A stretch of 64,000 bases of DNA. It comes from Solirubrobacteraceae bacterium (lineage in GTDB: Bacteria; Actinomycetota; Thermoleophilia; Solirubrobacterales; Solirubrobacteraceae). Position numbers and translations under genes: made by a program. Each line of letters opens with the position of its first letter. Within the stretch, counting starts at the first letter, position 1. Positions 10,893 to 33,303 of this stretch are shown here, piece after piece. Location of the stretch: positions 62,001 through 126,000 of the forward strand of contig JANWIP010000019.1 in the NCBI GenBank assembly GCA_025449845.1, read 5' to 3'. The notes under the pieces were generated by a model. That model was given only the letters and a program-made list of their open reading frames with translations. It did no database searches and was not told the origin of the DNA.

Positions 10893-11002
10893 TCGCTGAT
10901 CGTCCTCGACCGCTGCGAGCCGCTGATCGTCCTCGCGCCCGTTGGTGTCGCGCTCGTTGGCGTGCTCGTCGTCCTCGCTCGCGTCGGGATCGGCAGCTGC
11001 GC

Positions 11003-11713
11003 TCACGCTGCGACCACTGACGCGCAAGGTCTGGAGGATTCGAAGTCATCTCCCAGATAGGCGACCTCCAGCGGAACCTCCACCACGCTATGTCCGCGTG
11101 GCTCGACCCTGTACGCCTTGGCCTGCGGACGCGAGCTGACCACCCGCATCAGCCGTCGCCCGCAGAAATGCAGCGCTGCGCCATCGTCGGTGGCGAAGCC
11201 TGCGCGCATGCCATCGCCTACGAAACGGTGATACTCCTCGCGCCGCTGGGGCTCGGCGTCGTAGTGCACGCAGTTGGAGTACGGCAAAAGCCCCAATCCC
11301 CGTACCCGTCGCGGCGGACCATGAAAGGCGCTCAGGGCCTCGCTGAACCAGCACAGCGAGCCCGCGGAAGGACCGCACATCACGATGCCCTGCTCCCATG
11401 CGCGATGCAGCACCTCATCCAGGCCGTGCGCGCGCCACACGCCCAGCATGCTCACCACATTGCCGCCGCCCACATAGATCACATCCTGGGAGAGCAGGTG
11501 CGAGGCCACGTCCTCCTCGACCCCGCCCGTGCCCTGGTCGCGGCGGAAGAGCGACACATGACTCGCCTCGCATTCCGCCGAGAAACGGCGGTAGAAGCGC
11601 ACCACGTAGTGGTCCGCATCGCCTGAGGCCGTCGGCAGGAAGCACACGCGTGGGCGCGCCACGCCGGCCAGCGAGAGCACGTAGTCATCGAGCAACGAAC
11701 TGTCCTTCTCCAT
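11003..11713 (-). CDS. Peptidase S51-like protein, copy 2, apparent 5' frameshift
   Basis: A 236-residue S51-like protein (RVCFLPTASGD, DVIYVGGGNVV, nucleophile elbow CGPSAGSLCWF), paralogous to the adjacent copy 1. As read, it starts at MEKDSS and lacks the first beta strand. In-frame translation upstream gives ILALGGGGFS, the missing conserved strand, but no ATG, GTG or TTG precedes it in that frame. An ATG at 11771 preceded by AGAGAGG lies one base out of frame. Removing one base from the C4 run (plus-strand G4 at 11748-11751) would fuse it to the conserved strand. It is therefore a frameshift, a sequencing error, or a rare start codon. Confidence 0.75.
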   Translation of the reverse strand: MEKDSSLLDDYVLSLAGVARPRVCFLPTASGDADHYVVRFYRRFSAECEASHVSLFRRDQGTGGVEEDVASHLLSQDVIYVGGGNVVSMLGVWRAHGLDEVLHRAWEQGIVMCGPSAGSLCWFSEALSAFHGPPRRVRGLGLLPYSNCVHYDAEPQRREEYHRFVGDGMRAGFATDDGAALHFCGRRLMRVVSSRPQAKAYRVEPRGHSVVEVPLEVAYLGDDFESSRPCASVVAA

Positions 11714-11950
11714 CGAGAAGCCGCCACCACCCAGGGCGAGTATCTGAGGGGTTGAGGGTCGCGTGGTTCATCACCTCTCTAGCTGACGGTCGTCGGGGGT
11801 CGCCGCGGAGCTGGCGCGGGTTGAGTTCGTAGCTAAGTGTCGCCGCGTGGGGTCACTGCGCCATATGGACGGCGGTTGGAATTTGTGCTGGGCTCTCTGG
11901 ACATCCGACTATCACCCCGGGAGGAGGGCGGTTCGCGCAACAATCCGCAC

Positions 11951-12649
11951 GTGAAGATCCTCGTGGTGGATGACGACCGCGCCGTGCGTGAGGCGCTCAG
12001 GCGCGCATTGCAACTGGCCGGTTATGAGGTGCAGGGCGCTGAGGATGGCACTCGCGCGCTGGACGCGATCGCCACCGATATCCCTGACGCCGTCGTACTG
12101 GACGTGGGGCTGCCGGGCATGGACGGCTTGGAGGTGTGCCGCCGCCTGCGCCGCCTGCAGAACCGCGTGCCGATCCTGATGCTGACCGCGCTTGACGCTG
12201 TGGAGGATCGCATCGACGGCCTGGATGCCGGCGCTGATGACTACATGACCAAGCCTTTTGACGTCGGCGAGTTGAAGGCTCGCCTGCGCGCGTTGCTGCG
12301 CCGCTCGGGCCAGGGGTCTGGTGAAGAAGGCAACGGTGAGGGCGAGGAGGACGTGCCGGTGTTCGCCGGCGTGCGCCTGGACGGCATCCGGCACGGCGCC
12401 GTGGTGGGGGACAAGCTCGTCGAGTTGACGCGCACCGAGTATCAGCTGCTTGAGCTCTTCATGCGCAATCCCCAGCGCGTGCTGGCCCACAACGTCATCT
12501 ACGAGCGTGTCTGGGGCTATGACTTCGGGCCCACCTCCAACGCCTTGCGCGTCTACATCGGATATCTGCGCCGCAAGCTGGAGGATGCCGGGGCTCCTCA
12601 TCTGATTCACACCGTGCGCGGTCTCGGCTACGTCTTGCGCGAGCCTTGA
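11951..12649 (+). CDS. OmpR-family response regulator (MprA-like)
   Basis: A 232-residue two-component response regulator. The receiver domain (1-115) has the acidic pocket VVDDD, phospho-acceptor Asp51 in VVLDVGLPGMDG, Thr in LMLTAL and Lys in MTKPFD. A winged-helix DNA-binding domain (about 135-230) contains VELTRTEYQLLELFMRNP and RRKLEDAG. The GTG at 11951 gives the normal family N-terminus; a longer frame from 11837 would add 38 unlikely residues. A GGGAGGAGG tract lies about 24 bases upstream, too far for a good ribosome site. The cognate kinase gene follows directly. Confidence 0.93.
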   Translation: MKILVVDDDRAVREALRRALQLAGYEVQGAEDGTRALDAIATDIPDAVVLDVGLPGMDGLEVCRRLRRLQNRVPILMLTALDAVEDRIDGLDAGADDYMTKPFDVGELKARLRALLRRSGQGSGEEGNGEGEEDVPVFAGVRLDGIRHGAVVGDKLVELTRTEYQLLELFMRNPQRVLAHNVIYERVWGYDFGPTSNALRVYIGYLRRKLEDAGAPHLIHTVRGLGYVLREP

Positions 12650-12651
12650 TC

Positions 12652-14199
12652 ATGATCATGAGCATGCGCGCGCGCATCGCCGCGACCGCGGGCGTATCCG
12701 TTGCGCTTGCCGTGCTCGTGGCTGCACTGGGGCTGTATCTCGGCGTGCGCTCGGATCTGCGCGGGGAAATCGACAAGTCGCTGCGCGCGCGGGCGAGTGT
12801 TCTCTCGGCACCTGCCTTCAGTGGGCGGCCCGGTCCGGGCCGCCCTCCCAGGCGCGCCGGGGGCGGGCTGCCTCCGGGGAACGGGGGTGGGCCGCCTCCG
12901 CGCGATGGAGACGCAGATGACGGCGGTCCGGCAGGTGCCCCCAGTGCGGGTAGTGCTCCGCGTGGCACCCCCGACGGCGGTGGTCCGGGTGGCGCGCCCG
13001 ACGGTTTTCCCGCCAATGTCCTGCCGGCTCCGTTTGGTGAGGCGCAGGGCTACGTGCAGTTCATCTCGCCTCAGGGGGCGCTGGTGGTGCCCGGCGGTCA
13101 GCGTTCCCCCGCGCGCATCGCTCCCACCGCGCAGGAGGCGCTGATTGCCAGCCGCGGCAGTGGCAGCGCATTCACCGATCGCACCGTCAGAGGCATCAGG
13201 CTGCGCATCCTCACGCTTGGCACCGGCGCTCGTGGCGCGGTGATGGTGGCCCGGCCGCTCACCGAGGTCGACCACGAGCTCAGCAGGCTGCTCCTCCTCC
13301 TGCTGGTGATCGGTGCGGCGGGAAGCGCGCTGGCGGTGTTGCTTGGGGCGCTGGTGGCGCGCACCGCGCTTGCGCCGATCGCGCGCTTCACCAGACGTAC
13401 CGAGAGCTTGAGCGACAACCTGGATCTCTCCCAGCGCCTGGATGTCAGTGGTCGCGACGAGCTGGCGCGGCTGGCGCAGAGCTTCAACGCCACGCTCGAT
13501 GCGCTTGAGCACTCCGTGCTTGCCCAGCGTCATCTGATCGCCGACGCCGGTCATGAGCTGCGCACTCCCATCGCCAGCCTGCGCGCCAATATCCAGGTGC
13601 TCCAGGAGGCGGATCGTCTGCCGCCCCACGAGCTGGAGAACTTGCGTCAGGACGTGCTGGCGGAGCTGGATGAGCTGACGGCGCTCGTCGCCGACGTCGT
13701 GGAGTTGGCCCGCGGCGGCGAACACGACGCGGGGGATGTGTCACTTGACGACGTGCGCCTGGATCACATCGTCGAACATGCCCTCACACGCGCGCGCCGC
13801 CGTGGTGACGTGCGCTTTGAGTCCCGGCTGCAGCCCACGCTCCTGCGCGGCCAGGGCCAGCGCATCGATCGCGCCGTCTCGAACCTGCTGGACAACGCTC
13901 TCAAGTTCACTCCGCCGCAGGGGCTTATCGAAGTCGAGCTGAAGGATGGCGAGCTGACCGTGCGCGACCATGGTCCCGGTTTCGCGGAGTCCGATCTGCC
14001 GTTTGTATTTGATCGCTTCTACCGCGCCGACGGTGCTCGTGGTCAGCCCGGCTCGGGGCTCGGGCTCGCGATCGTGCGTCAGACTGCGCTCGATGGCGGT
14101 GGCTATGCCAAGGCCGGGAACGCGCCCGGCGGCGGGGCGCTGCTGTGCGTCAGCTTCGGCTCATACACAGCTCCTACACAAGCCAAGGGCCTGACTTAG
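12652..14199 (+). CDS. Sensor histidine kinase (MprB-like)
   Basis: A 515-residue membrane sensor kinase paired with the preceding regulator. It has a first helix (ATAGVSVALAVLVAALGLYL), an extracytoplasmic region of about 170 residues rich in Gly and Pro, a second helix near residue 215 (LLLLLLVIGAAGSALAVLL), a HAMP domain, a HisKA domain with His301 in DAGHELRTP, and a HATPase domain (NLLDNALKFTPP, GSGLGLAIVR). Several starts are possible: a TTG at 12646 overlapping the regulator stop, and ATGs at 12652, 12658 and 12664. The Gly/Pro-rich sensor insert is low complexity and gives no ligand clue. Confidence 0.92.
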   Translation: MIMSMRARIAATAGVSVALAVLVAALGLYLGVRSDLRGEIDKSLRARASVLSAPAFSGRPGPGRPPRRAGGGLPPGNGGGPPPRDGDADDGGPAGAPSAGSAPRGTPDGGGPGGAPDGFPANVLPAPFGEAQGYVQFISPQGALVVPGGQRSPARIAPTAQEALIASRGSGSAFTDRTVRGIRLRILTLGTGARGAVMVARPLTEVDHELSRLLLLLLVIGAAGSALAVLLGALVARTALAPIARFTRRTESLSDNLDLSQRLDVSGRDELARLAQSFNATLDALEHSVLAQRHLIADAGHELRTPIASLRANIQVLQEADRLPPHELENLRQDVLAELDELTALVADVVELARGGEHDAGDVSLDDVRLDHIVEHALTRARRRGDVRFESRLQPTLLRGQGQRIDRAVSNLLDNALKFTPPQGLIEVELKDGELTVRDHGPGFAESDLPFVFDRFYRADGARGQPGSGLGLAIVRQTALDGGGYAKAGNAPGGGALLCVSFGSYTAPTQAKGLT

Positions 14200-14752: not shown

Positions 14753-15643
14753 ATGAGTAATCCCTGGCCGGCATTTGAACTGCAGTCTCACTCGCTGTAC
14801 TCCGACGGCGAACTGCCCGTCGCCGGGGTCATCGAGCACGCCGCGCGCGCGGGCGTTGAGCTGTTGGCGCTGACCGACCACGACACGGTCGACGGCGTCT
14901 CCGAGGCGCTCAGCGCGGCGGCTTCGCACGGCATCGCGCTGCTGCCCGCCACCGAGATCTCCGCGGTCGATGGCTCATACGAGGACCTGCACCTGCTGGG
15001 CTATGGCATTCGCCACGACGATCCCGTGCTGCGCGACCGCCTCGCCGGCGCGCGCGGGGATCGTGAGGCGCGTGCCGGGCGCATGACGCAGAAGCTCGAA
15101 GAGCTGGGCTTCGAGGTCGATCAGGCTCCCTTGCAGGCGCGGCTTGACGCGGGCAAGCCGCTTGGGCGCCCTCACCTTTCAGCGGCGGTGCTGTCGCATC
15201 CGGCCAACGCCGCCCGGCTGGCCGAGGAAGGCCACGACGATGTCGCCTCCTTCTTGCCTGCCTACCTGATCCCCGGCACCCCCGCCTACTCGGGGCGCAC
15301 CGAGCCCACGGTGGGGGAGGCGATCGATTGGATCCACGAGGCCGGCGGCGTGGCGGTATGGGCGCACCCGTTCTGGGACATCGATTCTCCTGGAGAGGTG
15401 CTTGAGGCGATCGATCGCTTCGTGGCCTTGGGCGTCGATGGCGTGGAGTGCTTCTACGTGACCTACGACGGCCCTCAGACGCAGCTCCTGGCCGATCGTT
15501 GCGAGGAGCTGGGGTTGCTCACAACGGGCTCCTCGGATTTCCACGGGCCGGCGCATCGGCTCTTCAGCCGCTTCCTCGCCCACAAGCTGCACGGCCACCA
15601 ACCCAATCTCGGCCCCCTCGCCGACGCTGTAGTGGCGGTCTAA
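14753..15643 (+). CDS. PHP-domain phosphoesterase (YciV / pAp phosphatase-like)
   Basis: A 296-residue PHP-superfamily metal-dependent phosphoesterase. Metal-binding motifs are visible: HSLYSDGE (His13, Asp18), LTDHDT (Asp42, His43), TEIS (Glu68), WAHPFW and SSDFHG. This layout matches the YciV/RNase AM and 3',5'-nucleoside bisphosphate phosphatase group, which can hydrolyse pAp, the by-product of PAPS-dependent sulfotransfer. The ATG at 14753 gives the canonical N-terminus. It is the first gene of a tight run with two arylsulfotransferases and an exporter (gap of 10 bp to the next gene), so a role in pAp recycling is attractive but inferred. Confidence 0.87.
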   Translation: MSNPWPAFELQSHSLYSDGELPVAGVIEHAARAGVELLALTDHDTVDGVSEALSAAASHGIALLPATEISAVDGSYEDLHLLGYGIRHDDPVLRDRLAGARGDREARAGRMTQKLEELGFEVDQAPLQARLDAGKPLGRPHLSAAVLSHPANAARLAEEGHDDVASFLPAYLIPGTPAYSGRTEPTVGEAIDWIHEAGGVAVWAHPFWDIDSPGEVLEAIDRFVALGVDGVECFYVTYDGPQTQLLADRCEELGLLTTGSSDFHGPAHRLFSRFLAHKLHGHQPNLGPLADAVVAV

Positions 15644-15653
15644 GGGGCGCAGC

Positions 15654-17633
15654 GTGGGCGGCAAGCTGAAGTTTGGTCTGCTGATCCTGCCGCTCGCCGG
15701 GCTCGCCTGGGTGGTCGTTGCCGTCGTGCTCGGCACCGGCTCTTTCTCCGGCGCGCACACCGTCGTCGGGCCTAGTGGGCCTTCGCCCGTGTGCTTACCC
15801 GCCACGCTCGAACACAACGCCACGCTGCCGAGCCCGGTAGACACTGGCTCCGCTCGCATCCCCGTTTCGGCCAGCAGCAAGGTCTCGGTCTCACCCGCGC
15901 CTGACACGGACACCGCCAACCCCAAGACGCAGATCAGCTTCCTCGGCACCTCCGTCAGCAACATCCAGGACGTCTCCGTCACCGGCTCGCGCTCGGGCTA
16001 CCACTATGGCCACGTCTACGGCTACTTCCAGGGCGACGGCGGCAGCTTCGTGCCCAACACGCCTTTCACCGAAGGCGAGCGCGTGGTGGTGCGCGCCGTG
16101 CTCGACGGCGCCTCCGGCGCGGGGCAGCGCATCGGTTTCAGCTTCCGCGTCGCCACTCCTTTCCCCACCGACGGCATTCCCGAGTTCCCCAACCCGCCCG
16201 CGCCGGCCTCCGCCTACCAGAGCTTCGTCTCACAGCCCGGCGTGCAGCCGCCCGTGATGTCGGTCACGGTGCCCGACCGCGATCCTGCCGCGGGGGACAT
16301 CCTCACCACGGTCGGCCCCGGCCCCGGCCAGTTCGGGCCGCTCATCTACACCCCGCAGGGGCGCATCGTCTGGTTCGACCCGCTCTCCGGTGGCGTCAAC
16401 GCTGAGAACCTCAGCCTGCAGAGCTACGAGGGCCGCCAGGATCTGACCTGGTGGCAGGGCGATGTGCTGATGCTCGGCTTCGGCCAGGGTGAAGACATCG
16501 TGATGGATGACAACTACCAGACCGTTGCCCGCGTGCGTGCCGGCAATGGCTTCCAGGCCGACCTGCACGACTTCCAGCTGGCGGGCGATCAGGTCGCCTA
16601 CATCACCGTCTACAACCCGATGCGCTGCGACCTCACCCCGATCGATGGGCCGCGCAACGGCACCGTCGTGGACACCGCCGTGCAGGAGATCGACGTCAAG
16701 ACCGGTCTCGTGCGCTGGGAATGGCACAGCCTCGATCACGTCGGCGTGGGCGAGTCGCACGCGCCGGTGCCCGACAAGGAAAAGCCCACGCCTTGGGACT
16801 ACTTCCATCTGAACTCCGTCGACCCCGAGTCCGACGGCAATCTGCTCATCTCCGGGCGCTCCACCTGGGCCGCCTACCAGCTCCAGCAGGGCTCCGGCGC
16901 GATTCAGTGGCGGCTGGGGGGGACCAAGAGCAGCTTCACCATGGGGCCCGGCAGTGAAACCGCCTGGCAGCACGATGCGCGCATGCACTCCGACGGCGCC
17001 GTCACCTTCTTCGATGATGGCTCCAACCCGCGCATTCACTATCAGTCGCGCAGCGTCCGCGTGGCCATCGACATCCCGCACCATCGCGCTACGCTCGCGC
17101 GCGTCTATACGCACCCGAACGCGCTGATGGCTGACTCGCAGGGTAACTCGCAGACGCTTGCCGATGAAAGCGTCGTCGTCGGATGGGGCGCCGTGCCCGA
17201 GATCACGGAGTTCGCCCAGGATGGGCATCTGCTGTTCGACGCTCACCTGCCGCCTGGCATGTCCTCCTACCGTGCTTTCCGCTTCCCTTGGCATGGGCAT
17301 CCGCTGGCGACGCCCGCGGTCAGCGCCGCCATTCTCACCACCGGCGATTCCACCGCTGTCTTCGCCAGCTGGAATGGCGCCACCGACGTCGCCTCCTGGC
17401 GCGTGCTCGCGGGCGCCGATCCCGACTCGCTCAAGCCCGTCGCCACGATGCCCGACAGTGGCTTTGAGAGCTCCATCACGCTGCCCGAGAACTACGGCTC
17501 GCATCCCGGCAAGAGCGAATCCGGCGACAACGGTTACCTCGCCGTGCAGGCGCTCGACTCTGCCGGGCAGTTGCTCAGCACCTCCGCCACCTTCGCCGTG
17601 CTCCCGCCCCCTGCCGCCAAGCCCGCGGGCTGA
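15654..17633 (+). CDS. Arylsulfotransferase (ASST-like), membrane-anchored
   Basis: A 659-residue PAPS-independent arylsulfotransferase-like protein. It has an N-terminal signal or anchor helix (LLILPLAGLAWVVVAVVL), a small domain around TQISFLGTSVSNIQDVSVTG, then a beta-propeller. The four catalytic positions known from E. coli ASST have candidates in the right order: His305 (DLHDF), His385 (DYFHLNS), Arg402 (ISGRST) and His440 (WQHDA). ASST moves sulfate between phenolic esters outside the cytoplasm through a sulfo-histidine. GTG start with AAGGGG upstream. It is co-transcribed with the PHP gene upstream and the MFS gene downstream. Confidence 0.87.
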   Translation: MGGKLKFGLLILPLAGLAWVVVAVVLGTGSFSGAHTVVGPSGPSPVCLPATLEHNATLPSPVDTGSARIPVSASSKVSVSPAPDTDTANPKTQISFLGTSVSNIQDVSVTGSRSGYHYGHVYGYFQGDGGSFVPNTPFTEGERVVVRAVLDGASGAGQRIGFSFRVATPFPTDGIPEFPNPPAPASAYQSFVSQPGVQPPVMSVTVPDRDPAAGDILTTVGPGPGQFGPLIYTPQGRIVWFDPLSGGVNAENLSLQSYEGRQDLTWWQGDVLMLGFGQGEDIVMDDNYQTVARVRAGNGFQADLHDFQLAGDQVAYITVYNPMRCDLTPIDGPRNGTVVDTAVQEIDVKTGLVRWEWHSLDHVGVGESHAPVPDKEKPTPWDYFHLNSVDPESDGNLLISGRSTWAAYQLQQGSGAIQWRLGGTKSSFTMGPGSETAWQHDARMHSDGAVTFFDDGSNPRIHYQSRSVRVAIDIPHHRATLARVYTHPNALMADSQGNSQTLADESVVVGWGAVPEITEFAQDGHLLFDAHLPPGMSSYRAFRFPWHGHPLATPAVSAAILTTGDSTAVFASWNGATDVASWRVLAGADPDSLKPVATMPDSGFESSITLPENYGSHPGKSESGDNGYLAVQALDSAGQLLSTSATFAVLPPPAAKPAG

Positions 17634-17647
17634 CTACCCTCATCGTT

Positions 17648-19456
17648 GTGAGCACCGCCACCGTCCGCGCGCCTGCCGCTACCGCCATCGCCGAGGACAA
17701 AGCGAGCGCGCCTTCGCGTCACGCGTTGCTGCTGGCCGTCTGCTGCACCGCGCAGTTCATGGTCATCCTCGACGTCTCCATCGTCAACGTTGCCTTGCCT
17801 TCGATCCGCGTCAGCCTCGGCTTTGCCGAAAACGATCTGCAGTGGATCGTCAACGCGTACACGATCGCCTTTGCCGGCTTCCTGATGCTGGGCGGGCGGG
17901 CCGCCGACCTGATCGGCCAGCGCCGCGTCTTCGCCTCGGGCCTCCTGCTGTTCGCTTTCGCCTCGCTCCTTGGGGGGCTCGCGGGCAGCCAGGAGATGCT
18001 GATCGGCGCCCGTGGCCTGCAGGGTCTTGGTGGGGCGATCATGGCGCCGGCCTCGCTCTCGATCATCAACTCCTCCTTCGCCCCCGGCGCTGAAAGGCTG
18101 CGCGCGATCGGCATGTGGGGGGCCATGAACGGGGCCGGTGGCGCCGCCGGCGTGCTGTTCGGCGGCATCATCACGCAGAGCCTCGGCTGGCGCTGGATCC
18201 TGCTGATCAACATCCCGATCGGCATTGCCGCCGCGCTTGTCGCGCGCGTCGCCGTGCCCGAACGGCGTCCGCAGGGCAAGCAGGGCGGCTTTGACCTTGG
18301 CGGTGCTCTGACCATCACCGGCGGACTCCTGGCGCTGGTGTTCGGCATCGTCAGAGCCGGTGTGGCCGGTTGGGGCTCGGCGGAAGCGCTCGGGCCGATC
18401 GTGCTCGGCATCACACTGCTGAGCGCCTTCTTTCTGATCGAGGCGCGCTTTGCCTCCGCGCCGCTCGTGCCGCTGCGCGTGCTCTCGATCAAGCTGCTGC
18501 GCTCCGCCAACCTGATCGTCTTCCTCTTCAGCGCCGCGCTCTTTCCGATGTGGTACTTCCTCTCGCTCTATCTCCAGTTGGTGCTGAAGATGCCGCCGAT
18601 CGGCGCCGGTCTGGCCTTCCTGCCGATGGCGCTCACGATCATGGCCTGCGCCGCGCGCTCCGGACGGCTCGTCGCACGCTACGGCGCCGGGCCCGTCTTG
18701 GGGGGTGGGCTCACACTGATGGCCTTTGGCCTTGCGATCTTCGGCGCGCGCGTCGCCGTCAACGGCGGCTACGTCTCGGATCTGCTCCTGCCCGGTCTGC
18801 TCGTCTCGGTGGGACTTGGCTATTCGGTCGTGCCTTCCACGATCGCCGCCACCGCCGGCGTCGCTCCGCGCGAGGCCGGGCTGGCCTCGGGTCTTGTCAA
18901 CACCTCGCGCCAGATGGGTGGCGCGCTCGGGCTGGCCGTGCTCACCTCGCTGGCCTTTCAGTACACCACCCACCTCGTCAAGGTGGACTACCGCGCGCCG
19001 CTGCTCGCGCTCACTGACGGCTTTCGCCTCGCCTTCCTGCTGGCCGCCGCCTTAGCTTTCATCGGCGCCGTCGCTGCCTTCAGGCTGATCCCGCGCGTGC
19101 GCCCCGGGGCGCCTGCGGCGGGTCCTGCGCCTGTGCCGGCGGCGGCTCCCGCATCCGTGCCGGCGTCCGCTCCTGCTTCTGTTGCGCCTGAGGCTGCTGC
19201 TCCGCTCGCCTCGCAGGCAACCGTGCATCCGCTTCCTCTGCCTGTGAGCCAGCCGGCTCCCAGCGCGCGGCCCGCGCCTTCTTCAGGGACCCCCGTGGTC
19301 TTCCCGGCACCGGCTCCGGCTGCGCAACACGCAACCCCAACCCCTCCTCCCCATACCCCTACTTACGCCCCGCCCGCGGTTGTCGTCTTCCGCCTCGGGG
19401 GTGGACAGTCTTGGCCCACCGGCGGCTGCTTCACCGCGGGAGGGCTGCGGGGCTGA
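17648..19456 (+). CDS. DHA2-type MFS exporter with long Pro/Ala tail
   Basis: A 602-residue DHA2-family exporter with about 14 helices (LDVSIVNVALPSI in helix 1, GGRAADLIGQRRVF motif A, RGLQGLGGAIMAPASL, WRWILLINIPIG). It starts with GTG 14 bp after the arylsulfotransferase stop. The last 115 or so residues form a Pro/Ala/Ser-rich cytosolic tail unusual for the family; its final codons overlap the start of the lipoprotein arylsulfotransferase gene (TGATG). Placement between two ASST genes suggests it exports the donor or acceptor of extracellular sulfotransfer. Confidence 0.9.
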   Translation: MSTATVRAPAATAIAEDKASAPSRHALLLAVCCTAQFMVILDVSIVNVALPSIRVSLGFAENDLQWIVNAYTIAFAGFLMLGGRAADLIGQRRVFASGLLLFAFASLLGGLAGSQEMLIGARGLQGLGGAIMAPASLSIINSSFAPGAERLRAIGMWGAMNGAGGAAGVLFGGIITQSLGWRWILLINIPIGIAAALVARVAVPERRPQGKQGGFDLGGALTITGGLLALVFGIVRAGVAGWGSAEALGPIVLGITLLSAFFLIEARFASAPLVPLRVLSIKLLRSANLIVFLFSAALFPMWYFLSLYLQLVLKMPPIGAGLAFLPMALTIMACAARSGRLVARYGAGPVLGGGLTLMAFGLAIFGARVAVNGGYVSDLLLPGLLVSVGLGYSVVPSTIAATAGVAPREAGLASGLVNTSRQMGGALGLAVLTSLAFQYTTHLVKVDYRAPLLALTDGFRLAFLLAAALAFIGAVAAFRLIPRVRPGAPAAGPAPVPAAAPASVPASAPASVAPEAAAPLASQATVHPLPLPVSQPAPSARPAPSSGTPVVFPAPAPAAQHATPTPPPHTPTYAPPAVVVFRLGGGQSWPTGGCFTAGGLRG

Positions 19457-21258
19457 TGCGCTTGCGGGGGGGAGGGCGACTGGCTGGGCTGCCCCTGGGC
19501 GCTGCCGTTCTGGCCGTGCTGCTGTCCGCCTGCGGGGGTTCCTCGCCGGCTGCTTCCAAAGCATCGCTGTCTGATCCCGTCGCGGTCTCGCCTTTTGCCG
19601 GCACGCCCGACGCTTCGCCGACCACGCAGATCAGCTTCCTCGGGTCGGCCGGTACTCATGTGCAGTCGATTACTGTCACTGGTTCGCGCAGTGGCGCTCA
19701 CAGTGGGCACTTGGCGGCTTATTCCACTGGTACGGGTGAAAGTTTTCTGCCCGCGCATCCTTTCCTTGCTGGCGAGAAGGTGACGGTCACTGCGCAGGTG
19801 TTGGCGGCTGGGTCCACTCGGGCCACCACAACCACTTTCACCATCGCTCACCAGGCGGCAGTAAGTCACAGTGAATTTCCCACCAGTCCCGGCGATCCTC
19901 ATGCCGTGCAGCATTACCGCTCGGCGCCTGCGCTCACGCCTTCTAGTTTGAAGCTGACCGTGCCCGCTCGCCCCGGCGCGGCGCCCGGGGACCTCTTTCT
20001 CGCTCCGTATCAGGGTCAGGGTTCGCCTGGGCCTGAGATCGTCGACCAGCAGGGGCGGCTTGTCTGGTTTCACCCTTTGCCCGCGCATCAGATTGCCACC
20101 AACTTTCAGGTGCAGAGCTACCAGGGGCGCCCCGCTCTCACCTGGTGGCAGGGCCATGTGCTGCAGGTTGGCTTCGGCGAGGGTGAAGATGAGATCTATG
20201 ACTCCTCCTATCACCCCTTGGCCACGGTTCGCGCCGGCAACGGCTACCACGCGGACTTGCACGAGATCCGCCTTACTCCGCAGGGCACCGCCTGGATCGA
20301 TGCCTTCGACCCGATTCACCTCAGCCTCAGCTCTGTGCAGGGTGCCGCGGGTGGTGTCCTCACCGATTCCGTCGTCCAGCAGATCGACATCAAGACCGGG
20401 CTCGTCATGTGGGAGTGGCACGCGCTTGGCCATGTCGCCTTGAGTGAGTCCTACGACCTGCCCGTGCCTCACAACAGCTATCCCTGGGATTACATTCACA
20501 TCAACTCCATCGATCCCGGCGCGGGTAATGATGTGCTGCTTTCCGGGCGCAGCACCTGGGCGCTCTATGACGTGGATCTGGGCAGCGGTGCCATCAACTG
20601 GCGCCTCGGTGGCGCGCACAGCGATTTTCATCTCGGTTCCGGCGTGCGCTTCTACTGGCAGCACGACGCCGAGTTCCAGGCCGGTGGGCTCATCTCCGTG
20701 TTTGATAACGGCTCCACGCCGCCTAAGGAGCGCCAATCGCGCGGGTTGTTGCTGCTGCCCAATCTTTCAAGTCACACCGTCACCTTGCAGAAGGCCTTCG
20801 TCAATCCTGCCAAGACGCTGCTGGCCTCAAGTCAGGGCAATACCTTGGCGCTGCCCGGCGGCGATTGGCTGATGGGCTATGGCGGCTTGCCCAACCTCAC
20901 CGAGTACGACGCCTCCGGGCATGTGCTGCTTGACGCCTCGCTTGGCAAGAATGTGCAGAACTTTCGCTCCTACTTGTCGCCTTGGAGCGGGCAGCCAACC
21001 ACTGCGCCTGCGCTGGCTGTGCAGTCTGCCGGTGCCGGCAAGCTCAGCGTTTTCGCCAGCTGGAATGGCGCCACCGCTGTTGCCTCCTGGCGCGTGCTTG
21101 CTGGTTCATCCGCGGGGGCGCTTGCGCCGGTTGGCGCTGCACCTCGGGCGGGTTTTGAGACCTCCATTCAGATCTCCAGCAGCGCTGCTTATGTGGCCGT
21201 GCAGGCGCTCGACGGTTCTGGCGCGGTGCTGGGCACCTCGCCCACCGTCAAGAGCTGA
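19456..21258 (+). CDS. Arylsulfotransferase (ASST-like) lipoprotein
   Basis: A 600-residue second ASST-like protein with a lipoprotein signal peptide (LAVLLSACGGSS, lipidated Cys26), so it is tethered outside the membrane. It parallels the protein encoded at 15654: TQISFLGSAGTHVQSITVTG-type domain, then propeller with DLHEI, DYIHINSID, LSGRSTWAL and YWQHDA, keeping all four catalytic positions. The start ATG overlaps the MFS stop (TGATG), indicating translational coupling. The two ASST paralogues differ in anchoring and may act in series or on different acceptors. Confidence 0.88.
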   Translation: MRLRGGGRLAGLPLGAAVLAVLLSACGGSSPAASKASLSDPVAVSPFAGTPDASPTTQISFLGSAGTHVQSITVTGSRSGAHSGHLAAYSTGTGESFLPAHPFLAGEKVTVTAQVLAAGSTRATTTTFTIAHQAAVSHSEFPTSPGDPHAVQHYRSAPALTPSSLKLTVPARPGAAPGDLFLAPYQGQGSPGPEIVDQQGRLVWFHPLPAHQIATNFQVQSYQGRPALTWWQGHVLQVGFGEGEDEIYDSSYHPLATVRAGNGYHADLHEIRLTPQGTAWIDAFDPIHLSLSSVQGAAGGVLTDSVVQQIDIKTGLVMWEWHALGHVALSESYDLPVPHNSYPWDYIHINSIDPGAGNDVLLSGRSTWALYDVDLGSGAINWRLGGAHSDFHLGSGVRFYWQHDAEFQAGGLISVFDNGSTPPKERQSRGLLLLPNLSSHTVTLQKAFVNPAKTLLASSQGNTLALPGGDWLMGYGGLPNLTEYDASGHVLLDASLGKNVQNFRSYLSPWSGQPTTAPALAVQSAGAGKLSVFASWNGATAVASWRVLAGSSAGALAPVGAAPRAGFETSIQISSSAAYVAVQALDGSGAVLGTSPTVKS

Positions 21259-21261
21259 TCT

Positions 21262-21966
21262 TTAGGCCACGACTCCACTGCTCTGGCGCTCGCGCCATGT
21301 CGCCAGTGTGGCGATCGCACCGTCGGCCACTCTGCCCAGGAATGTCTCGCGGTCGTTCACGTGCGGCAGCGGCTCTGGCGGCACCTCCACTTCCATGAAC
21401 TCACACAGCGGCTCCCATCCGTCCGTTACCTGCCACACCAGCAGGCGCTCCGCGGGCACGGTCTGCTTTACCTCCTCGTTGTGGCGCTCCATCTCCGCCA
21501 TCAACTCGCCTGGGGTCGCGTGGCCGTTGGCGAAGGTGCCTTCCGGGCCCCAGAACATCCGCTGTACCAGCGCCAGATAATCCTGCCACTGCGGATCCAC
21601 CTGCGCGCGGGCACTTGACAGCAGTCGCAGCAGCGACTCGCCGTGGCCCATATTCCAGATCGTCTCGCGGAAGCTGGGCTCCCACTTCTCTGCGTTGCGC
21701 ACACTCAGCAGCACCTTGGCGTCGGGGTAGGCCTCCATCAGCTCCTTGTAGAAGTAGCCCCCCGGCCAGTCCACGCTTGAGTCAAAGCCGGCGAAGATTT
21801 CCTGCCATGGTCCCTCGCCGTCCATCGCGCGCTGCCACTGATCGACCCTGCGCAGGTCGGCCAGCACGTCCACCCAGTGGTAGCAAGGCCCCAGGCCCAG
21901 CATCTCGACTGCCACTTTCTGCGTCAGCGTGCCCGTGCGGGGCAGGCCCGCGCCGATTAATCTCAT
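21262..21966 (-). CDS. Sulfotransferase-family P-loop protein (paralogue 2)
   Basis: A 234-residue cytosolic sulfotransferase-family protein. The phosphosulfate-binding loop is GLPRTGTLTQK, with a likely 3'-phosphate segment LLSVRNAEKWEPSF. It closely resembles the product of 2083-2778. The start ATG has GGAG six bases upstream. Its stop lies three bases from the stop of the convergent ASST lipoprotein gene, and its start is 89 bp from the divergent type III PKS gene, so it may share control with the PKS. Inference: a PAPS-dependent enzyme that could sulfate the PKS product and generate the pAp removed by the PHP enzyme. Confidence 0.83.
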   Translation of the reverse strand: MRLIGAGLPRTGTLTQKVAVEMLGLGPCYHWVDVLADLRRVDQWQRAMDGEGPWQEIFAGFDSSVDWPGGYFYKELMEAYPDAKVLLSVRNAEKWEPSFRETIWNMGHGESLLRLLSSARAQVDPQWQDYLALVQRMFWGPEGTFANGHATPGELMAEMERHNEEVKQTVPAERLLVWQVTDGWEPLCEFMEVEVPPEPLPHVNDRETFLGRVADGAIATLATWRERQSSGVVA

Positions 21967-22055
21967 CCGCCGCTCCTTTTGTGCTCTCCGGGGGTTGCTC
22001 CGGTATCGTCTCGCCCTTGGCCTGACGCTTTGCTCATCTGATTCAGGGGGACCGT

Positions 22056-23180
22056 TTGCAGTTGAAGGTTACCGGCGCACCGCAGCTTGACTCGCCTCGC
22101 ACCGCCTTGCGGGGGCCGCGCATCACCGCTCTGGAGTTGGCTGACGCCGAGATGTCCTTCTCGCAAGAGGAGGTCCTCACGATGCTCGACATGAAAGGCG
22201 ACGAGTTCGCCGAGCGCATCTTCAGCCGCTGTGGCGTGCAGCGCCGTCACCTCAATCTCAGCGGCGACTCGCTGGCTACCACGCTGCAGGGTCGCACCTC
22301 GCAGATCGAGGAGGAGCTGTTTGGCTTTGCCGTGCAGGCCGTCGATCGCCTGCAGGTCGATCCGCTTGAAATCGGCACCGTCGTGACGGCCACGCTCTAC
22401 TCGCTCGGTGGACCCACCTTGGCTCATCGTCTGGTGGACCACTACGACATGGATCCTTCCACCGACAAGTACCACGTGCTGGGCGTCGGCTGTGCCAGCG
22501 CCGTGCCGCTGATGCGCCTCACGGCGCAGTCGATGCGCGACCATCCCGGCAAGAAGGGACTGGTCGTCGCCGCCGAGAGCATGGCCGGCATTCTCATGCG
22601 CTCCGCCGAGGATGACTCGCGCGCCAAGATCGTGGGCTCCTCGATCTTTGGCGATGGCTGTGCCGCGGCGCTGCTCGATGGGGACCCTCTGCCTGAGGGG
22701 GAGGATGACTCTGGTCTTGGCGCCGGCTGCGGTGGCGTGGGGGTCGGTCCGACGATCGTCGCTTCCAAGGTTCACCAGATCGGCCGCACGCTGGGGGCCG
22801 TCAAGCTTGAGCTCGCCGCGCAGGACAGCTATCTGCACCTCGACCGCGATCTGCCGGACCGCGCCGGTGAGGGCCTTCAGGAGCTCGCCGAAGATTTCCT
22901 TGACGCTTATGGGCTCTCGCGCGCCGCGATTGATCACTGGGTGGTTCACCCTGGCGGGCGACGCATCATCGAGACCGTGCAGGAGGCGCTTGATCTTTCG
23001 CGCGAGCAGGTCGAGATTAGCTATGAGGTGCTTGCCAACCACGGCAACGTCGGCACTCCCTCGATCCTCTACGTGTTGAAGAAGACGATCGAGCAGCGCG
23101 AGCCTCAGGCGGGCGAGTACGGGCTGATGATCACCATCGGCCCCGGCATCACCGTCGGGCTGATGCTCCTGCAGTGGTAG
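22056..23180 (+). CDS. Type III polyketide synthase
   Basis: A 374-residue chalcone/stilbene-synthase-like enzyme that condenses a starter acyl-CoA with malonyl-CoA into pyrones, resorcinols or other phenolics. The catalytic triad is complete: Cys146 in LGVGCASAVPL, His298 in WVVHPGG and Asn331 in HGNVGTPS. The TTG start is supported by GGGGGA five bases upstream. The gene is divergent from the sulfotransferase-family gene and close to the arylsulfotransferase operon, an association that suggests a sulfated phenolic product. It has no methyltransferase or oxidase partner next to it, unlike the srs and ars-type clusters. Confidence 0.92.
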   Translation: MQLKVTGAPQLDSPRTALRGPRITALELADAEMSFSQEEVLTMLDMKGDEFAERIFSRCGVQRRHLNLSGDSLATTLQGRTSQIEEELFGFAVQAVDRLQVDPLEIGTVVTATLYSLGGPTLAHRLVDHYDMDPSTDKYHVLGVGCASAVPLMRLTAQSMRDHPGKKGLVVAAESMAGILMRSAEDDSRAKIVGSSIFGDGCAAALLDGDPLPEGEDDSGLGAGCGGVGVGPTIVASKVHQIGRTLGAVKLELAAQDSYLHLDRDLPDRAGEGLQELAEDFLDAYGLSRAAIDHWVVHPGGRRIIETVQEALDLSREQVEISYEVLANHGNVGTPSILYVLKKTIEQREPQAGEYGLMITIGPGITVGLMLLQW

Positions 23181-23248: not shown

Positions 23249-26200
23249 ATGAGGTTCCCCGTTCGCGTATCGCTCCTCGCGCTGCTGCTCAGCGGTGCGC
23301 TCTTGGCTGTCTCGGCGTCTGCTGCGCTGGCCGCACCGGAATTCGGGCTTGAAAGCTTCTTCGCGTCCAACTGCAAGGTCGCCACCTGCAACAAGGCCGC
23401 GACCCCCGCCGAAGAAAAGGCCAAGGCCGAAGCGGAAGCCTATACCCAGGCTGCTGGGCATCCTCCGTTCGGTGTCAGCGATTTCAAGCTTAATCGCAAG
23501 GTGATACAGACGGTGCCTTTCACGACGCTTGGTCCCGTGGCCAGTGTCAAGAGCCTGCGCATCGACGTCGCCCCCGGCGTGAGCACCAATCCCGAGGCCG
23601 TCGCGAAGTGCTCGGTGAAGAACTTCGAATCCACAGAAGTGGAACCCGTCAAGCATATCTTCCTGGCGCCCAACTGCGTCGAAACTGGTGCTGGCAACAC
23701 CATCATCGGCGAAAACCACATCACCACAGTGCTTGAAGTGGCGGCCGGTGTGTTCGCCGACGTACCGCTGTCGGGCAAGGTCTACAACCTCGAACAGCCC
23801 TCCGGCATGTCCTCCTATTTCGGTGTGGCCCTGGGGGTGCCCGGATCCCCCGGAGCCTTCGTGCACACATTTATCGAGGGGCACGTCGAATGGGCCAGCA
23901 ATTACCACGATCTCTTTGAAATTCACAACATCCCGCCCGGGCTGCTCGAATCGCGCCTGATCTTCAACGGCAACAACGGCCCGCTTGAAAATGGCGCCTT
24001 CCTGAGCAACCCCAGCAACTGCGCGGGCCCTGGCCCGTCCACCACCACGGGTTGGAGCGGCGAATCCTACGAAGGAGCCAGGGCAACCAGCTCCTACACG
24101 GTGCCGATCGGCACCGAAGGCTGCAACGGTCTGCCGCCTTTCGCGCTCGCTCCCTTCGCGCCGACCTTCTCGCTGGCACCGGAAACGACGCAGTCCGACC
24201 AGCCCGACGGCGTCACCACCGAACTTGTGCTGCCCCACGATCCCAATCCCGCGCACCTGGACTCCGCGCAGCTCAAGTCGGCCAGTGTTCTGCTGCCCGA
24301 AGGCATGACGCTCAATCCCTCGGCGGCGCATGGGCTTGAAGCTTGCTCGCCCGCGCAGATCGGCATTCATACGCGCGAACCTGTCACCTGCCCCGGCGGC
24401 TCGAAGGTGGCCGACGCGACCTTGAACGTGCCCGGCCTACCCGCGGGCTCCCTCGTGGGAAGCGTCTTTCTGGGCGGGCCTGCGGTTGGGAACAGCTCTG
24501 CGGCCGGACCCATCGGTGGGCCTCCCTTCGTCGTCTATCTCGACGCCGAGTCTGCTCGCTATGGCATCTCCGTGCGCCTCGCGGGCGAAGTGGTGCCCGA
24601 TGAAGGTACCGGGCGGCTGACGGTCGTCTTCCCCGACAACCCCGAACAGCCCTTCAGCGATCTGATCCTGAAGTTCACCCCGGGTGCGCTGGCGCCTGTG
24701 GCGAACCCGCTGGTGTGCGGCAGCGCAACGACCAGCACTGTGCTCAGCCCCTACACCGGCCAGCCCGCCGCCACGCCGTTCAGCTCATTCACGGTGGACA
24801 GTAACGGCCACGGCGGCGCCTGTCCTTCGCCGCTGCCTTTCTCGCTCAGCCAGTCCACGCAAGTGGCCCCTGCCACGGCCGGCTCGCCGAGCTCCTTCAC
24901 GTTCAACCTCGGGCGCGCCGATGGCCAGCAGTACCTGTCGCATGTCTCGGCCAAGCTGCCCGCGGGCCTCGTGGGCCTGATCCCCTCGGTGCCGCTGTGC
25001 GGTGAACCGCAGGCTGCCACCGGCGCCTGCTCCGCGGCCAGCCAGATCGGCACCGCCACGACGACCGCCGGCTCAGGGCCCACGCCTACGCAGTTCTCCG
25101 GTCCCGTTTATCTCACCGGTCCTGTCGGCCGCTCGCCCTACGGCATGGTCGTGGCGATTCCCGCCACCGCTGGGCCGTTCGCGCTTGGCACCGTGGTCGT
25201 GCGCACCAGCATCGACGTCGATTCCTTCACTGGACGCATCACCGTCAGCGGCAACGTGCCCACGATCTTCAAGGGCATCCCGCTGCGTCTGCGCTCCTTG
25301 AGCATGGCCATCAACCGTCAGGGCTTCCTCGTCAATCCCACCAACTGCGGTGTCCTGGCGACCGAAACCGCGCTCGGCTCCAGCATGGGTGCCAGCCAGA
25401 GCCTCTCGACGCCCTTCCAGGTCAGCAACTGCGGCGCCTTGGGCTTCAAGCCGAAGTTCACGGCCGCTTCGAACGCTGGCAGCGCCTCCAAGAAGAACGG
25501 CTTCGGCCTGGTCGTGAAGATCGGCTATCCGAAGGGTCCCCAGTCCAACCTGCGCTCGGTCGTGGCGCAGCTGCCCAAGCAGCTGCCTTCGCGCCTGACC
25601 ACCTTGCAGAAGGCCTGTCCGGAAGCGACCTTCAACGCCAATCCCTTCGCCTGCCCCTCGAACTCGCGCGTCGGTGGGGCGACCGTCTTCACGCCGGTCC
25701 TGTCGGGGAAGCTGACCGGCCCCGCCTTCTTCGTCTCGCACGGAGGCGCGGCCTTCCCCGACCTCGACCTCGTGCTCAGCGACGGCGGTGTGGAGGTGAT
25801 CCTGGTGGGCAACACCAACATCACCAAGGGCATCACCACCTCCACCTTCGCCGCCATCCCCGATGTGCCGGTGTCGAGCTTTGAACTCAACCTGCCCATC
25901 GGTCCCAACTCGGCGCTTACCTCCAACGGGGTCAACCTCTGCGGTCAGTCGCTGACGATGCCCACCACGCTCACCGCGCAGAGCGGCCCCGTGATCAAGC
26001 AGAACACCAAGATCACGCTTACCGGCTGTGGCGTAAAGGTTGCCTCGCACAAGACCAGCGGGCATACCGCGATCCTCACCGTCAACGCGCCTGAAGCGGG
26101 GCGCGTCAGCGGCAGCGGCTCGAACCTCAAGACCACCTACAAGCACACCGCCAAGGCGCAGAAGATCACGCTCAAGGTGCCGCTCACAAGCGGTGGCGTG

Positions 26201-26311
26201 AAGGCTCTGCACCGCAGTGGCAAGCTGAAGATCAAGCTGCGGGTGGGCTTTATCCCGCTCAAGAAGGGCCCTACCTCCAAGACGTTCGTGACGGTCACCT
26301 TCCACGGGTAA
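23249..26311 (+). CDS. Giant exported protein of a Solirubrobacterales-type family
   Basis: A 1020-residue protein with a signal peptide (MRFPVRVSLLALLLSGALLA through ALAAPEF) and no membrane anchor or sorting signal visible. It is built from beta-rich modules, with recurrent elements such as LPEGMTLNPSAAHGLEAC, PANPLVCGS-like, LPKQLPSRLTTLQKACPEA and GPAFFVSHGGAAFPDL. The C-terminal 600 residues or so match the product of 37253-40618. Cys pairs recur and probably form disulfides. GGGAGG precedes the ATG. Glutamate is encoded almost only by GAA (about 36 of 40), unlike adjacent genes. The function is not known; a cell-surface or matrix protein is likely. Confidence 0.85.
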   Translation: MRFPVRVSLLALLLSGALLAVSASAALAAPEFGLESFFASNCKVATCNKAATPAEEKAKAEAEAYTQAAGHPPFGVSDFKLNRKVIQTVPFTTLGPVASVKSLRIDVAPGVSTNPEAVAKCSVKNFESTEVEPVKHIFLAPNCVETGAGNTIIGENHITTVLEVAAGVFADVPLSGKVYNLEQPSGMSSYFGVALGVPGSPGAFVHTFIEGHVEWASNYHDLFEIHNIPPGLLESRLIFNGNNGPLENGAFLSNPSNCAGPGPSTTTGWSGESYEGARATSSYTVPIGTEGCNGLPPFALAPFAPTFSLAPETTQSDQPDGVTTELVLPHDPNPAHLDSAQLKSASVLLPEGMTLNPSAAHGLEACSPAQIGIHTREPVTCPGGSKVADATLNVPGLPAGSLVGSVFLGGPAVGNSSAAGPIGGPPFVVYLDAESARYGISVRLAGEVVPDEGTGRLTVVFPDNPEQPFSDLILKFTPGALAPVANPLVCGSATTSTVLSPYTGQPAATPFSSFTVDSNGHGGACPSPLPFSLSQSTQVAPATAGSPSSFTFNLGRADGQQYLSHVSAKLPAGLVGLIPSVPLCGEPQAATGACSAASQIGTATTTAGSGPTPTQFSGPVYLTGPVGRSPYGMVVAIPATAGPFALGTVVVRTSIDVDSFTGRITVSGNVPTIFKGIPLRLRSLSMAINRQGFLVNPTNCGVLATETALGSSMGASQSLSTPFQVSNCGALGFKPKFTAASNAGSASKKNGFGLVVKIGYPKGPQSNLRSVVAQLPKQLPSRLTTLQKACPEATFNANPFACPSNSRVGGATVFTPVLSGKLTGPAFFVSHGGAAFPDLDLVLSDGGVEVILVGNTNITKGITTSTFAAIPDVPVSSFELNLPIGPNSALTSNGVNLCGQSLTMPTTLTAQSGPVIKQNTKITLTGCGVKVASHKTSGHTAILTVNAPEAGRVSGSGSNLKTTYKHTAKAQKITLKVPLTSGGVKALHRSGKLKIKLRVGFIPLKKGPTSKTFVTVTFHG

Positions 26312-27408: not shown

Positions 27409-27467
27409 TGATTCACGGACGGGGGGGTCGCTGATCCACGGGTGGACGGCAGGCGGGTGATCCGTGC
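27409..27467 (+). repeat. Three imperfect direct repeats upstream of ferritin-like genes
   Basis: TGATTCACGG (27409), TGATCCACGG (27432) and TGATCCGTGC (27458) are spaced 23 and 26 bp apart in the 126-bp gap before the ferritin-like pair. They could be regulator binding sites on one face of the helix. No regulator gene is adjacent, so this is speculative. Confidence 0.3.
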
Positions 27468-27526
27468 GCGGGGCTCGCGCGCAGTATCCGCGAATAAGAA
27501 CCGGCCCCCGAAAATGGAGGTATGTG

Positions 27527-28198: not shown

Positions 28199-28219
28199 AC
28201 GCGGAAAGGAATCTTGACT

Positions 28220-32953: not shown

Positions 32954-33303
32954 GGGGCTTGTGGGGCGGTAGGGAGTAGTTTTCTCCTAGACAAATCTGG
33001 GCGTTTGTTTCCGATTATTCGTGGGTTTGGGGTCGATCGGGCCTTGCTCCATAAGGGATCTTGGGTGGAGGATTGAAGTATGGCCCGTTCTCCTTTCGAA
33101 TAGCTTGAGATAGTCCACTGGAGTCCCATACGCTGTGTAGGCCTCCTCGCAAACCGGCCCGCTTGGCGGAGATCGCGGGGGCGCAGCAAAGACATCTGTT
33201 GGCCGGCCTGCATGCTTAGGTCAGCCGGGGTGTCGCCTTATCCAAGAAGCGACTACCCAATCATCATCCCGGCCGTTGGCCGGAGGAAAGGAACGCAGAT
33301 CAT
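32954..33303. other. 350-bp gene-free leader upstream of the exported-protein island
   Basis: No gene is supported in this stretch. It marks the change from GC-rich housekeeping genes to the A/T-richer island. It holds the promoter-like block at 33095-33134, then a leader of about 170 nt. Directly before the ribosome site AGGAAAGG is a perfect hairpin CCGGCC-GTT-GGCCGG (33269-33283), which could mask translation. I looked for a known riboswitch class and saw none. Confidence 0.5.
33095..33134 (+). promoter_or_regulatory. Promoter-like block shared with the block at 40620
   Basis: TTCGAATAGC followed by TTGAGA (33105-33110), an 18-bp spacer and TACGCT (33129-33134). The same layout, with TTGACA and TACTCG and the same spacing, precedes the paralogous gene at 40711. 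Conservation of the block between duplicates while flanks differ argues that it is functional; a sigma-70-type -35/-10 pair is likely. Confidence 0.5.

What the first reader, a model, noticed from the sequence alone, without database searches (positions are those of the whole stretch)
14753..23180. Candidate sulfated-phenolic biosynthesis, transfer and export cluster
Six neighbouring genes fit one logic not usually seen together: a PHP phosphoesterase of the group that includes pAp phosphatases, an anchored arylsulfotransferase, a DHA2 exporter, a lipoprotein arylsulfotransferase, a PAPS-type sulfotransferase-family protein and a type III PKS. The first four are tightly spaced or overlapping; the sulfotransferase is divergent from the PKS by 89 bp. 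Proposed flow (inference): the PKS makes a phenol, the cytosolic enzyme sulfates it with PAPS, the PHP enzyme removes pAp, the MFS exports the ester, and the extracellular ASST pair pass the sulfate to other acceptors. Active-site residues are intact in the PKS (Cys146, His298, Asn331) and the ASSTs (e.g. His440).
Basis: partly seen in the sequence, partly recalled or inferred. Interest (0 to 1): 0.75.

Follow-up and report, generated by a model that had tools for sequence, protein, structure and literature searches.

The report
Polyketide-carried sulfate relay to cell surface
A soil bacterium carries a gene set that probably makes a small sulfated molecule, exports it and uses it to put sulfate on something outside the cell, a trick known from antibiotic making that here may serve as a general surface-sulfation system.

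Summary
The logic is largely right but not new in principle: PAPS sulfotransferase (ST) + type III PKS + ASST is the published two-step sulfation relay of caprazamycin (Cpz8/Cpz6/Cpz4). Tight ASST-PKS-ST operons also occur in 5 of 26 fetched Streptomyces-like ASST loci. New is its form in Solirubrobacterales. A PF17784 ST lies beside or fused to the PKS in 23 of 24 loci of this PKS clade, but in 0 of 56 more distant type III PKS loci. Two natural fusions join neighbouring steps: ST-PKS (7 of 24 loci) and MFS exporter-ASST (9 species), with an extra hydrophobic segment. APS kinase, which makes PAPS, lies beside an ASST in 5 species. Both ASSTs look extracytoplasmic, so a donor must be outside. 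PHP is nearly family-wide (54 of 61 genomes), so a weak member. Against: the two cores are on different contigs in 5 of 8 close genomes, and all six genes in this order were seen only here. Product, donor and acceptor are unknown; no chemistry was tested.

The parts
14753..15643 (+). PHP-family phosphoesterase, probable 3'-phosphoadenosine-5'-phosphate (pAp) or nucleoside-bisphosphate phosphatase; nearly family-wide gene
   Evidence: PF02811; NF041577 155 bits, below its cut-off of 400; best PDB 2yb1, 90 bits; upstream of ASST1 in 3 of 7 other genomes of the two closest genera; orthologue divergent from APS kinase in 3 of 3 genus-g22 genomes; present in 54 of 61 family genomes
15654..17633 (+). 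ASST1, PAPS-independent arylsulfate sulfotransferase with an N-terminal hydrophobic anchor
   Evidence: PF14269 1.6e-46, PF05935; anchor read from the sequence; His440 invariant in 13 of 13; ASST1 beside the MFS in this genome and in 7 of 7 other genomes of the two closest genera
17648..19456 (+). MFS (DHA2-like) exporter with a 120-aa Pro/Ala-rich tail; in relatives the same transporter is fused to an ASST domain
   Evidence: PF07690 1.1e-47; TIGR00711 222.4 bits against a cut-off of 230.2; MFS-ASST fusions in 9 species, Pfam-confirmed in the 6 scanned; these fused transporters are the best match in 7 of 7 other genomes of the two closest genera
19456..21258 (+). ASST2, lipoprotein arylsulfate sulfotransferase (lipobox LSAC), translationally coupled to the MFS by TGATG overlap
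   Evidence: PF14269 9.2e-51; start and lipobox from the sequence; best PDB 9kf4, 329 bits
21262..21966 (-). PAPS-type sulfotransferase, PF17784 (Sulfotransfer_4)
   Evidence: PF17784 2.6e-61; R10/T11/T13, R90 and S98 invariant in 18 of 18; best PDB 9kf1, 158 bits
22056..23180 (+). type III polyketide synthase, divergent from the sulfotransferase
   Evidence: PF02797, PF00195, PF08392; C146/H298/N331 invariant in 11 of 11; best PDB Pks11 alpha-pyrone synthase 4jao, 109 bits

Best explanation
The locus encodes a two-step sulfation relay that carries activated sulfate across the membrane. Cytosolic APS kinase (elsewhere in this genome) makes PAPS. The type III PKS makes a small hydroxypyrone or phenol. 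The PF17784 sulfotransferase moves sulfate from PAPS to it. A pAp phosphatase (possibly the PHP protein) clears the by-product. The MFS transporter exports the sulfate ester. The anchored and lipoprotein ASSTs outside take the sulfate onto a histidine and pass it to an extracytoplasmic acceptor, so the polyketide acts as a sulfate carrier. Shown here: gene content, family membership, intact catalytic residues, clade-wide PKS-ST linkage, ST-PKS and MFS-ASST single-ORF fusions, and APS kinase beside an ASST in some relatives. Inferred: every chemical step, the direction of flow, the exported species, the topology and the acceptor.
For: PKS-ST linkage: 23 of 24 loci in the PKS clade against 0 of 56 more distant type III PKS loci. 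ST-PKS single-ORF fusions in 7 of 24 clade loci (Pfam in the 2 scanned). MFS-ASST single-ORF fusions in 9 species (Pfam in the 6 scanned), with one more hydrophobic segment than the window MFS before the ASST domain in 6 of 6 examined in the right frame. In 2 of 3 g22 genomes (G022, G040) the genome's best MFS match lies 3-6 kb from its ASST. ASST in the fetched PKS locus in 7 of 23 clade loci that have an ST, about 1.1 expected from ASST density, simulated P 6.5e-5, species not independent. APS kinase in 11 of 11 genomes tested, and beside an ASST in 5 species (L057, L064, L074, L079, L159). In 3 of 3 g22 genomes APS kinase is divergent from the PHP orthologue. The same three families form a tight operon in 5 of 26 fetched Streptomyces-like ASST loci. 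Published precedent for PKS, then PAPS-ST, then ASST flow (passages in PMC4257720, PMC6731281, PMC4924298).
Against: No biochemistry. In 5 of 8 genomes of the two closest genera the ASST-MFS core and the ST-PKS core are on different contigs. 17 of 24 PKS-clade loci show no ASST in the fetched stretch, though some stretches are short. 21 of 26 Streptomyces-like ASST loci show neither the PKS-ST operon nor any PKS or ST, so ASSTs often work without this partner. This genome has neither fusion, and its APS kinase is on another contig. Of the 11 genomes with APS kinase located, only 3 (G043, G050, G057) have it beside an ASST (some stretches end near it). PF17784 members elsewhere are not tied to PKS (0 of 20 loci from 14 genomes). 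PHP is nearly family-wide, below its model cut-off and lacks one His of the HxH motif.
Confidence: 0.55

Rival explanations
1. Two separate systems that merely neighbour each other: (a) PKS plus sulfotransferase make and secrete a sulfated small metabolite as an end product; (b) MFS plus ASSTs handle environmental phenolics or phenol sulfates (detoxification or salvage), with donors from outside.
For: The two cores lie on different contigs in 5 of 8 close genomes. g22 genomes have the PKS-ST pair, with their ASST elsewhere in the genome. ASSTs are numerous, 3 to 13 matches per genome in the two closest genera, fragments included. 7 of 24 clade records have palsa, fen or bog in their isolate name, habitats rich in phenolics (recalled).
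Against: ASST enrichment near the PKS. APS kinase beside an ASST in 5 species, which ASSTs fed by outside donors would not need. Separate ASST-PKS-ST operons in Streptomyces-like genomes.
Confidence: 0.28
2. Part of an antibiotic-type (caprazamycin-like) biosynthetic cluster in which the relay sulfates one dedicated natural product made nearby.
For: The only characterised example of the relay that I met serves a liponucleoside antibiotic (passages).
Against: No biosynthetic cluster is evident among the 24 neighbouring window ORFs scanned (not all ORFs were): MFS, MlaE, ABC transporter, Peptidase_S51, two-component system, GGDEF, ferritin-like, aconitase, M42 peptidase, acyl-CoA thioesterase, a second PF17784 sulfotransferase and unmatched proteins. 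Several ASSTs per genome suggest more than one acceptor.
Confidence: 0.1
3. The PF17784 protein is not a sulfotransferase on the PKS product, or the fused ST domain is a structural relic.
For: PF17784 members are poorly characterised (recalled). The fused ST domains of four species sit on a long branch (0.91 changes per column).
Against: The putative PAPS-binding residues are invariant in 18 of 18, fused domains included. Solved relatives are mostly named sulfotransferases.
Confidence: 0.07

Closest known systems
Caprazamycin two-step sulfation relay, Cpz6 (type III PKS), Cpz8 (PAPS sulfotransferase), Cpz4 (ASST), Streptomyces sp. MK730-62F2 (Tang et al. 2013; original not read, passages citing it read)
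   Same: The same three enzyme kinds. There the PKS makes triketide hydroxypyrones, the PAPS enzyme sulfates them, and the ASST transfers the sulfate onward.
   Different: Here the ASSTs carry a membrane anchor or lipobox, an MFS exporter is translationally coupled to an ASST (fused in relatives), no antibiotic cluster is evident beside it, ST and PKS are fused in 7 of 24 clade loci, and APS kinase lies beside an ASST in some species. Whether Cpz4 is exported was not checked. The PKS shares only about 25-28% with the Streptomyces-like operon PKSs found here; common origin of the two PKS groups is neither shown nor rejected (p-AU 0.168). The Cpz sequences themselves were not available for comparison.
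Stand-alone ASST-PKS-ST operons of Streptomyces-like genomes (L259, L260, L261, L263, L264; found here)
   Same: Same three families in one tight operon, by profile search.
   Different: Order ASST-PKS-ST on one strand; no MFS-ASST fusion seen. In L263 histidine-kinase-like and ATP-binding genes are near, in L260 a histidine-kinase-like gene and a P450.
E. coli AssT (EcAST, PDB 3ELQ) and other PAPS-independent ASTs
   Same: EcAST His252/His356/Asn358/Arg374/His436 (quoted in PMC13426309) match the pattern H305/H385/N387/R402/H440 here.
   Different: The match is by motif and spacing, not by alignment or structure; no counterpart of EcAST Thr501 was identified. Natural substrates of most ASTs are described as unknown.

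Membership tests
Cpz6/Cpz8/Cpz4-type two-step sulfation relay | type III PKS, PAPS-type sulfotransferase and ASST encoded together | tested here: met
   window genes; relatives together in some, apart in others
Cpz6/Cpz8/Cpz4-type two-step sulfation relay | PAPS supply in the cell | tested here: met
   APS kinase in 11 of 11 genomes, own genome at C3:39674-40126
Cpz6/Cpz8/Cpz4-type two-step sulfation relay | sulfated PKS product is the donor used by the ASST | not testable with these tools
   needs biochemistry
Cpz6/Cpz8/Cpz4-type two-step sulfation relay | enzymes homologous to Cpz6, Cpz8, Cpz4 themselves | not tested
   Cpz sequences not in hand; solved chains 9kf1 and 9kf4 match ST and ASST but their origin could not be looked up
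Cpz6/Cpz8/Cpz4-type two-step sulfation relay | acceptor made by an adjacent liponucleoside antibiotic cluster | tested here: inconclusive
   no sign of one among the 24 neighbouring ORFs scanned; not all ORFs were scanned
Type III polyketide synthase | Cys-His-Asn catalytic triad and the chalcone/stilbene synthase domains | tested here: met
PF17784 sulfotransferase | PAPS-binding residues (5' loop RT.T, 3' R and S eight apart; function of the positions recalled) | tested here: met
   R10, T11, T13, R90, S98 invariant in 18 of 18; E 2.6e-61
PAPS-independent ASST (PF14269/PF05935) | catalytic His and sulfuryl-binding His/Asn/Arg | tested here: met
   H305, H362, H385, N387, R402, H440 invariant in 13 of 13
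DHA2 drug:H+ antiporter | score over the curated cut-off of TIGR00711 | tested here: not met
   222.4 against 230.2 bits, close to the cut-off; MFS_1 met
3',5'-nucleoside bisphosphate phosphatase (NF041577) | score over cut-off 400 | tested here: not met
   155 bits; first His of HxH is Gln in 7 of 7. It may still work like one.

The most novel reading that the evidence does not exclude
The polyketide is a dedicated, possibly recyclable carrier of sulfate across the cytoplasmic membrane: a general bacterial answer to how PAPS-derived sulfate reaches the outside, with exporter and ASST evolved into one 'export-and-transfer' protein in relatives and the loading enzyme fused to the carrier synthase. 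Several ASST paralogues would then sulfate different surface acceptors from the same carrier.
Probability: 0.4. Interest if true: 0.85.

Novelty: new variant of a known kind. Interest (0 to 1): 0.62.

Why it matters
The natural substrates and roles of most bacterial ASSTs are unknown (stated in the 2026 review PMC13426309, passages read). Here genome evidence names a specific candidate donor pathway for apparently extracytoplasmic ASSTs outside antibiotic biosynthesis, in a lineage that includes cultured Conexibacter (L095), so the question becomes directly testable. ST-PKS and MFS-ASST fusions may also be useful enzymes for making and transferring sulfate esters.

Tried and rejected
Considered and dropped: 'six-gene cluster conserved as such' (none of the related loci examined shows all six in order). 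'PHP is a dedicated cluster gene' (54 of 61 family genomes have it at E 1e-60 or better). 'PF17784 is generally linked to type III PKS' (0 of 20 loci from 14 genomes outside the clade; the three Streptomyces plasmid neighbourhoods viewed, of 15 plasmid records hit, list no type III PKS, though that gene table is incomplete). 'ASST and ST co-occur phylum-wide': of 396 genomes 33 have the ST, 35 an ASST match (25 after I set aside 10 weak ones), 15 both; all of the 15 except the own genome lie in one other family, so this is not independent evidence. 'Solirubrobacterales and Streptomyces-like modules share one origin': their PKSs fall apart in the tree, yet one clade is not rejected, p-AU 0.168 (24 of the 56 distant PKSs and 20 of the 24 clade loci plus the window were put in this tree). 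'Nannocystis PKS has another sulfotransferase beside it': no, 6 neighbouring ORFs scanned.

Full report
Observation. The window lies at G000:C19:62001-126000 of a 3.27-Mb genome. The closest named relatives found are mostly Solirubrobacterales/Solirubrobacteraceae metagenome-assembled genomes, 7 of 24 with palsa, fen or bog in the isolate name, plus cultured Conexibacter. All six genes are present at the stated coordinates with the stated spacing and families. The lipoprotein ASST starts at 19456, overlapping the MFS stop by one base (TGATG). Active-site residues are conserved: PKS C146, H298, N331 in 11 of 11 sequences; ASST H305, H362, H385, N387, R402, H440 in 13 of 13; sulfotransferase R10, T11, T13, R90, S98 in 18 of 18.

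Conservation of the ST-PKS pair. I scanned a collection of one genome for each of 84,980 species with an 11-sequence PKS alignment, by two conserved peptide patterns. 296 relatives were found and the best 80 kept. Of these 80, 24 fall in the window PKS's own clade (46% identity or more) and 56 are distant type III PKSs (24-31%). A PF17784 gene or domain lies beside the PKS in 23 of 24 clade loci and nowhere in the 56 distant loci, by tblastn and again by profile search. The exception is Nannocystis. Eighteen of the 23 have the divergent ST seen in the window, with 185-1037 bp between the ST and PKS matches (the larger values include a fused ST domain), four have PKS then ST on one strand, and one has only the fused form. 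The window genome itself is an additional case. The Fisher P of 3.5e-19 ignores relatedness.

Fusions. In 7 of 24 clade loci an ST domain and the PKS share one open reading frame of 561-650 codons; Pfam confirms both domains in the two that I scanned. In nine species (L054, L057, L058, L060, L062, L064, L066, L074, L079) the MFS and an ASST share one frame of 986-1179 codons; Pfam confirms both domains in the six that I scanned. In those six there is one more hydrophobic segment before the ASST domain than in the window MFS, e.g. residues 491-509 of the L057 protein. DHA2 transporters are taken to have both ends inside (recalled), so this segment would place the ASST outside; but the simple hydropathy scan found only 10-13 segments per protein, fewer than the 14 of a DHA2 transporter (recalled), so topology is inferred. 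The window genome has neither fusion; its MFS ends in a Pro/Ala-rich tail and is coupled to the separate lipoprotein ASST2. A sulfotransferase tree puts the fused domains with the same-strand Conexibacter-type partners, apart from the divergent stand-alone enzyme kept in the window.

Link of the two cores. Counting the window genome, ASST beside MFS is found in 8 of 8 genomes searched of the two closest genera, and ST-PKS in 8 of 8. Both lie together in 3 of 8 (G000, G035, G043) and on different contigs of draft assemblies in 5 of 8. PHP lies directly upstream of ASST1 in G000 and in 3 of the 7 others. The fused transporters are the best MFS match in 7 of 7 other genomes; in G022 and G040 of genus g22 the best match lies 3-6 kb from the ASST, in G054 not. 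An ASST lies in 7 of 23 clade loci that have an ST, against about 1.1 expected from ASST density (simulated P 6.5e-5, species not independent).

PAPS supply. APS kinase is in 11 of 11 genomes tested. It lies beside an ASST in L057, L064, L074, L079 and L159 (in L074 beside the PKS of the same 10-kb cluster); that is 3 of the 11 genomes (G043, G050, G057) plus two further species, and not in the window genome. L074 holds ASST2, the ASST-MFS fusion, ASST1, ST, PKS and APS kinase within 10 kb. In L064 a PHO4-type transporter gene is also near. In 3 of 3 g22 genomes APS kinase is divergent from the PHP orthologue, but not in the stretches seen of the 8 closer genomes. This supports a PAPS/pAp role for PHP only modestly, since PHP is in 54 of 61 family genomes and scores under the model cut-off.

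Precedent and separate occurrence. The relay logic is published: in caprazamycin biosynthesis a type III PKS (Cpz6) makes triketide pyrones, Cpz8 sulfates them with PAPS and Cpz4, an ASST, transfers the sulfate (passages in PMC4257720, PMC6731281, PMC4924298; Tang et al. 2013 itself not read). In 392 genomes of the genus of G250 (Streptomyces by my inference: one of its contigs has the length of a Streptomyces plasmid record) 21 have an ASST2 homologue at E 1e-30 or better, with at most three candidates per genome scored. All 26 listed ASST places were fetched; 5 carry a tight ASST-PKS-ST operon and 21 show only the ASST, some on short stretches. PKSs of these operons and of the window clade fall apart in the tree, but a single clade is not rejected (p-AU 0.168), so convergent assembly is suggested, not shown.

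Mechanism. Best reading: PAPS, then ST, then sulfated polyketide, then MFS, then extracytoplasmic ASST, then an unknown acceptor. The anchor and lipobox on the ASSTs and the MFS-ASST fusion imply a donor outside; the ST-PKS fusion implies loading at the synthase. The product may well be a hydroxypyrone rather than a phenol: best solved homologue by sequence is Pks11, an alpha-pyrone synthase, at 109 bits, which is distant. Main rival: two unrelated neighbours, given that the cores are often apart.

Literature. Searches for ASST with type III PKS and fusion (one fungal paper that only cites the Cpz relay), Solirubrobacter with sulfotransferase (none) and ASST with MFS and sulfate donor (none) found no description of this variant in the held open-access library; most subscription papers are not held. 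The review PMC13426309 says natural substrates and roles of ASTs remain poorly understood (passages).

Limits. No structure model finished; the Cpz sequences and the origin of PDB 9kf1/9kf4 could not be checked; most relatives are metagenome-assembled genomes with short contigs; all function is inferred.

Noticed in passing
window 2083-2799 (-): A second PF17784 sulfotransferase, 60% identical to the one in the finding; an MFS gene lies at 14-1186.
   Followed up: partly
window 11837-14199 (+): Two-component system (response regulator and sensor kinase, overlapping) upstream of the PHP gene; a possible regulator of the locus.
   Followed up: no
window 23249-26311 (+): 1020-aa predicted secreted protein without Pfam match, 68 bp after the PKS; related stretches elsewhere in the genome in L073 (44%) and, near APS kinase, in L158 (38%). 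Not found in the other related loci searched; a conceivable sulfation acceptor.
   Followed up: partly
G000:C19:23476-25266: Third ASST of the genome, about 52 kb upstream of ASST1 on the same contig; ASSTs are numerous in the two closest genera, 3 to 13 matches per genome, fragments included.
   Followed up: partly
L087: A contig labelled Chlamydiae carries the Solirubrobacterales module with a sulfotransferase very close to that of L088; probably a binning error.
   Followed up: no
L096 10001-11011: Nannocystis (Myxococcota) has a PKS of this clade (47%) without the sulfotransferase, suggesting horizontal transfer.
   Followed up: partly
window 32001-42000: Stretch of lower G+C (0.53-0.63) with two large proteins (34998-40618) with no Pfam match except DUF11.
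   Followed up: no
window 10071-11713 (-) and 27464-28915 (+): Tandem Peptidase_S51 pair and tandem Ferritin_2 pair flank the region.
   Followed up: no
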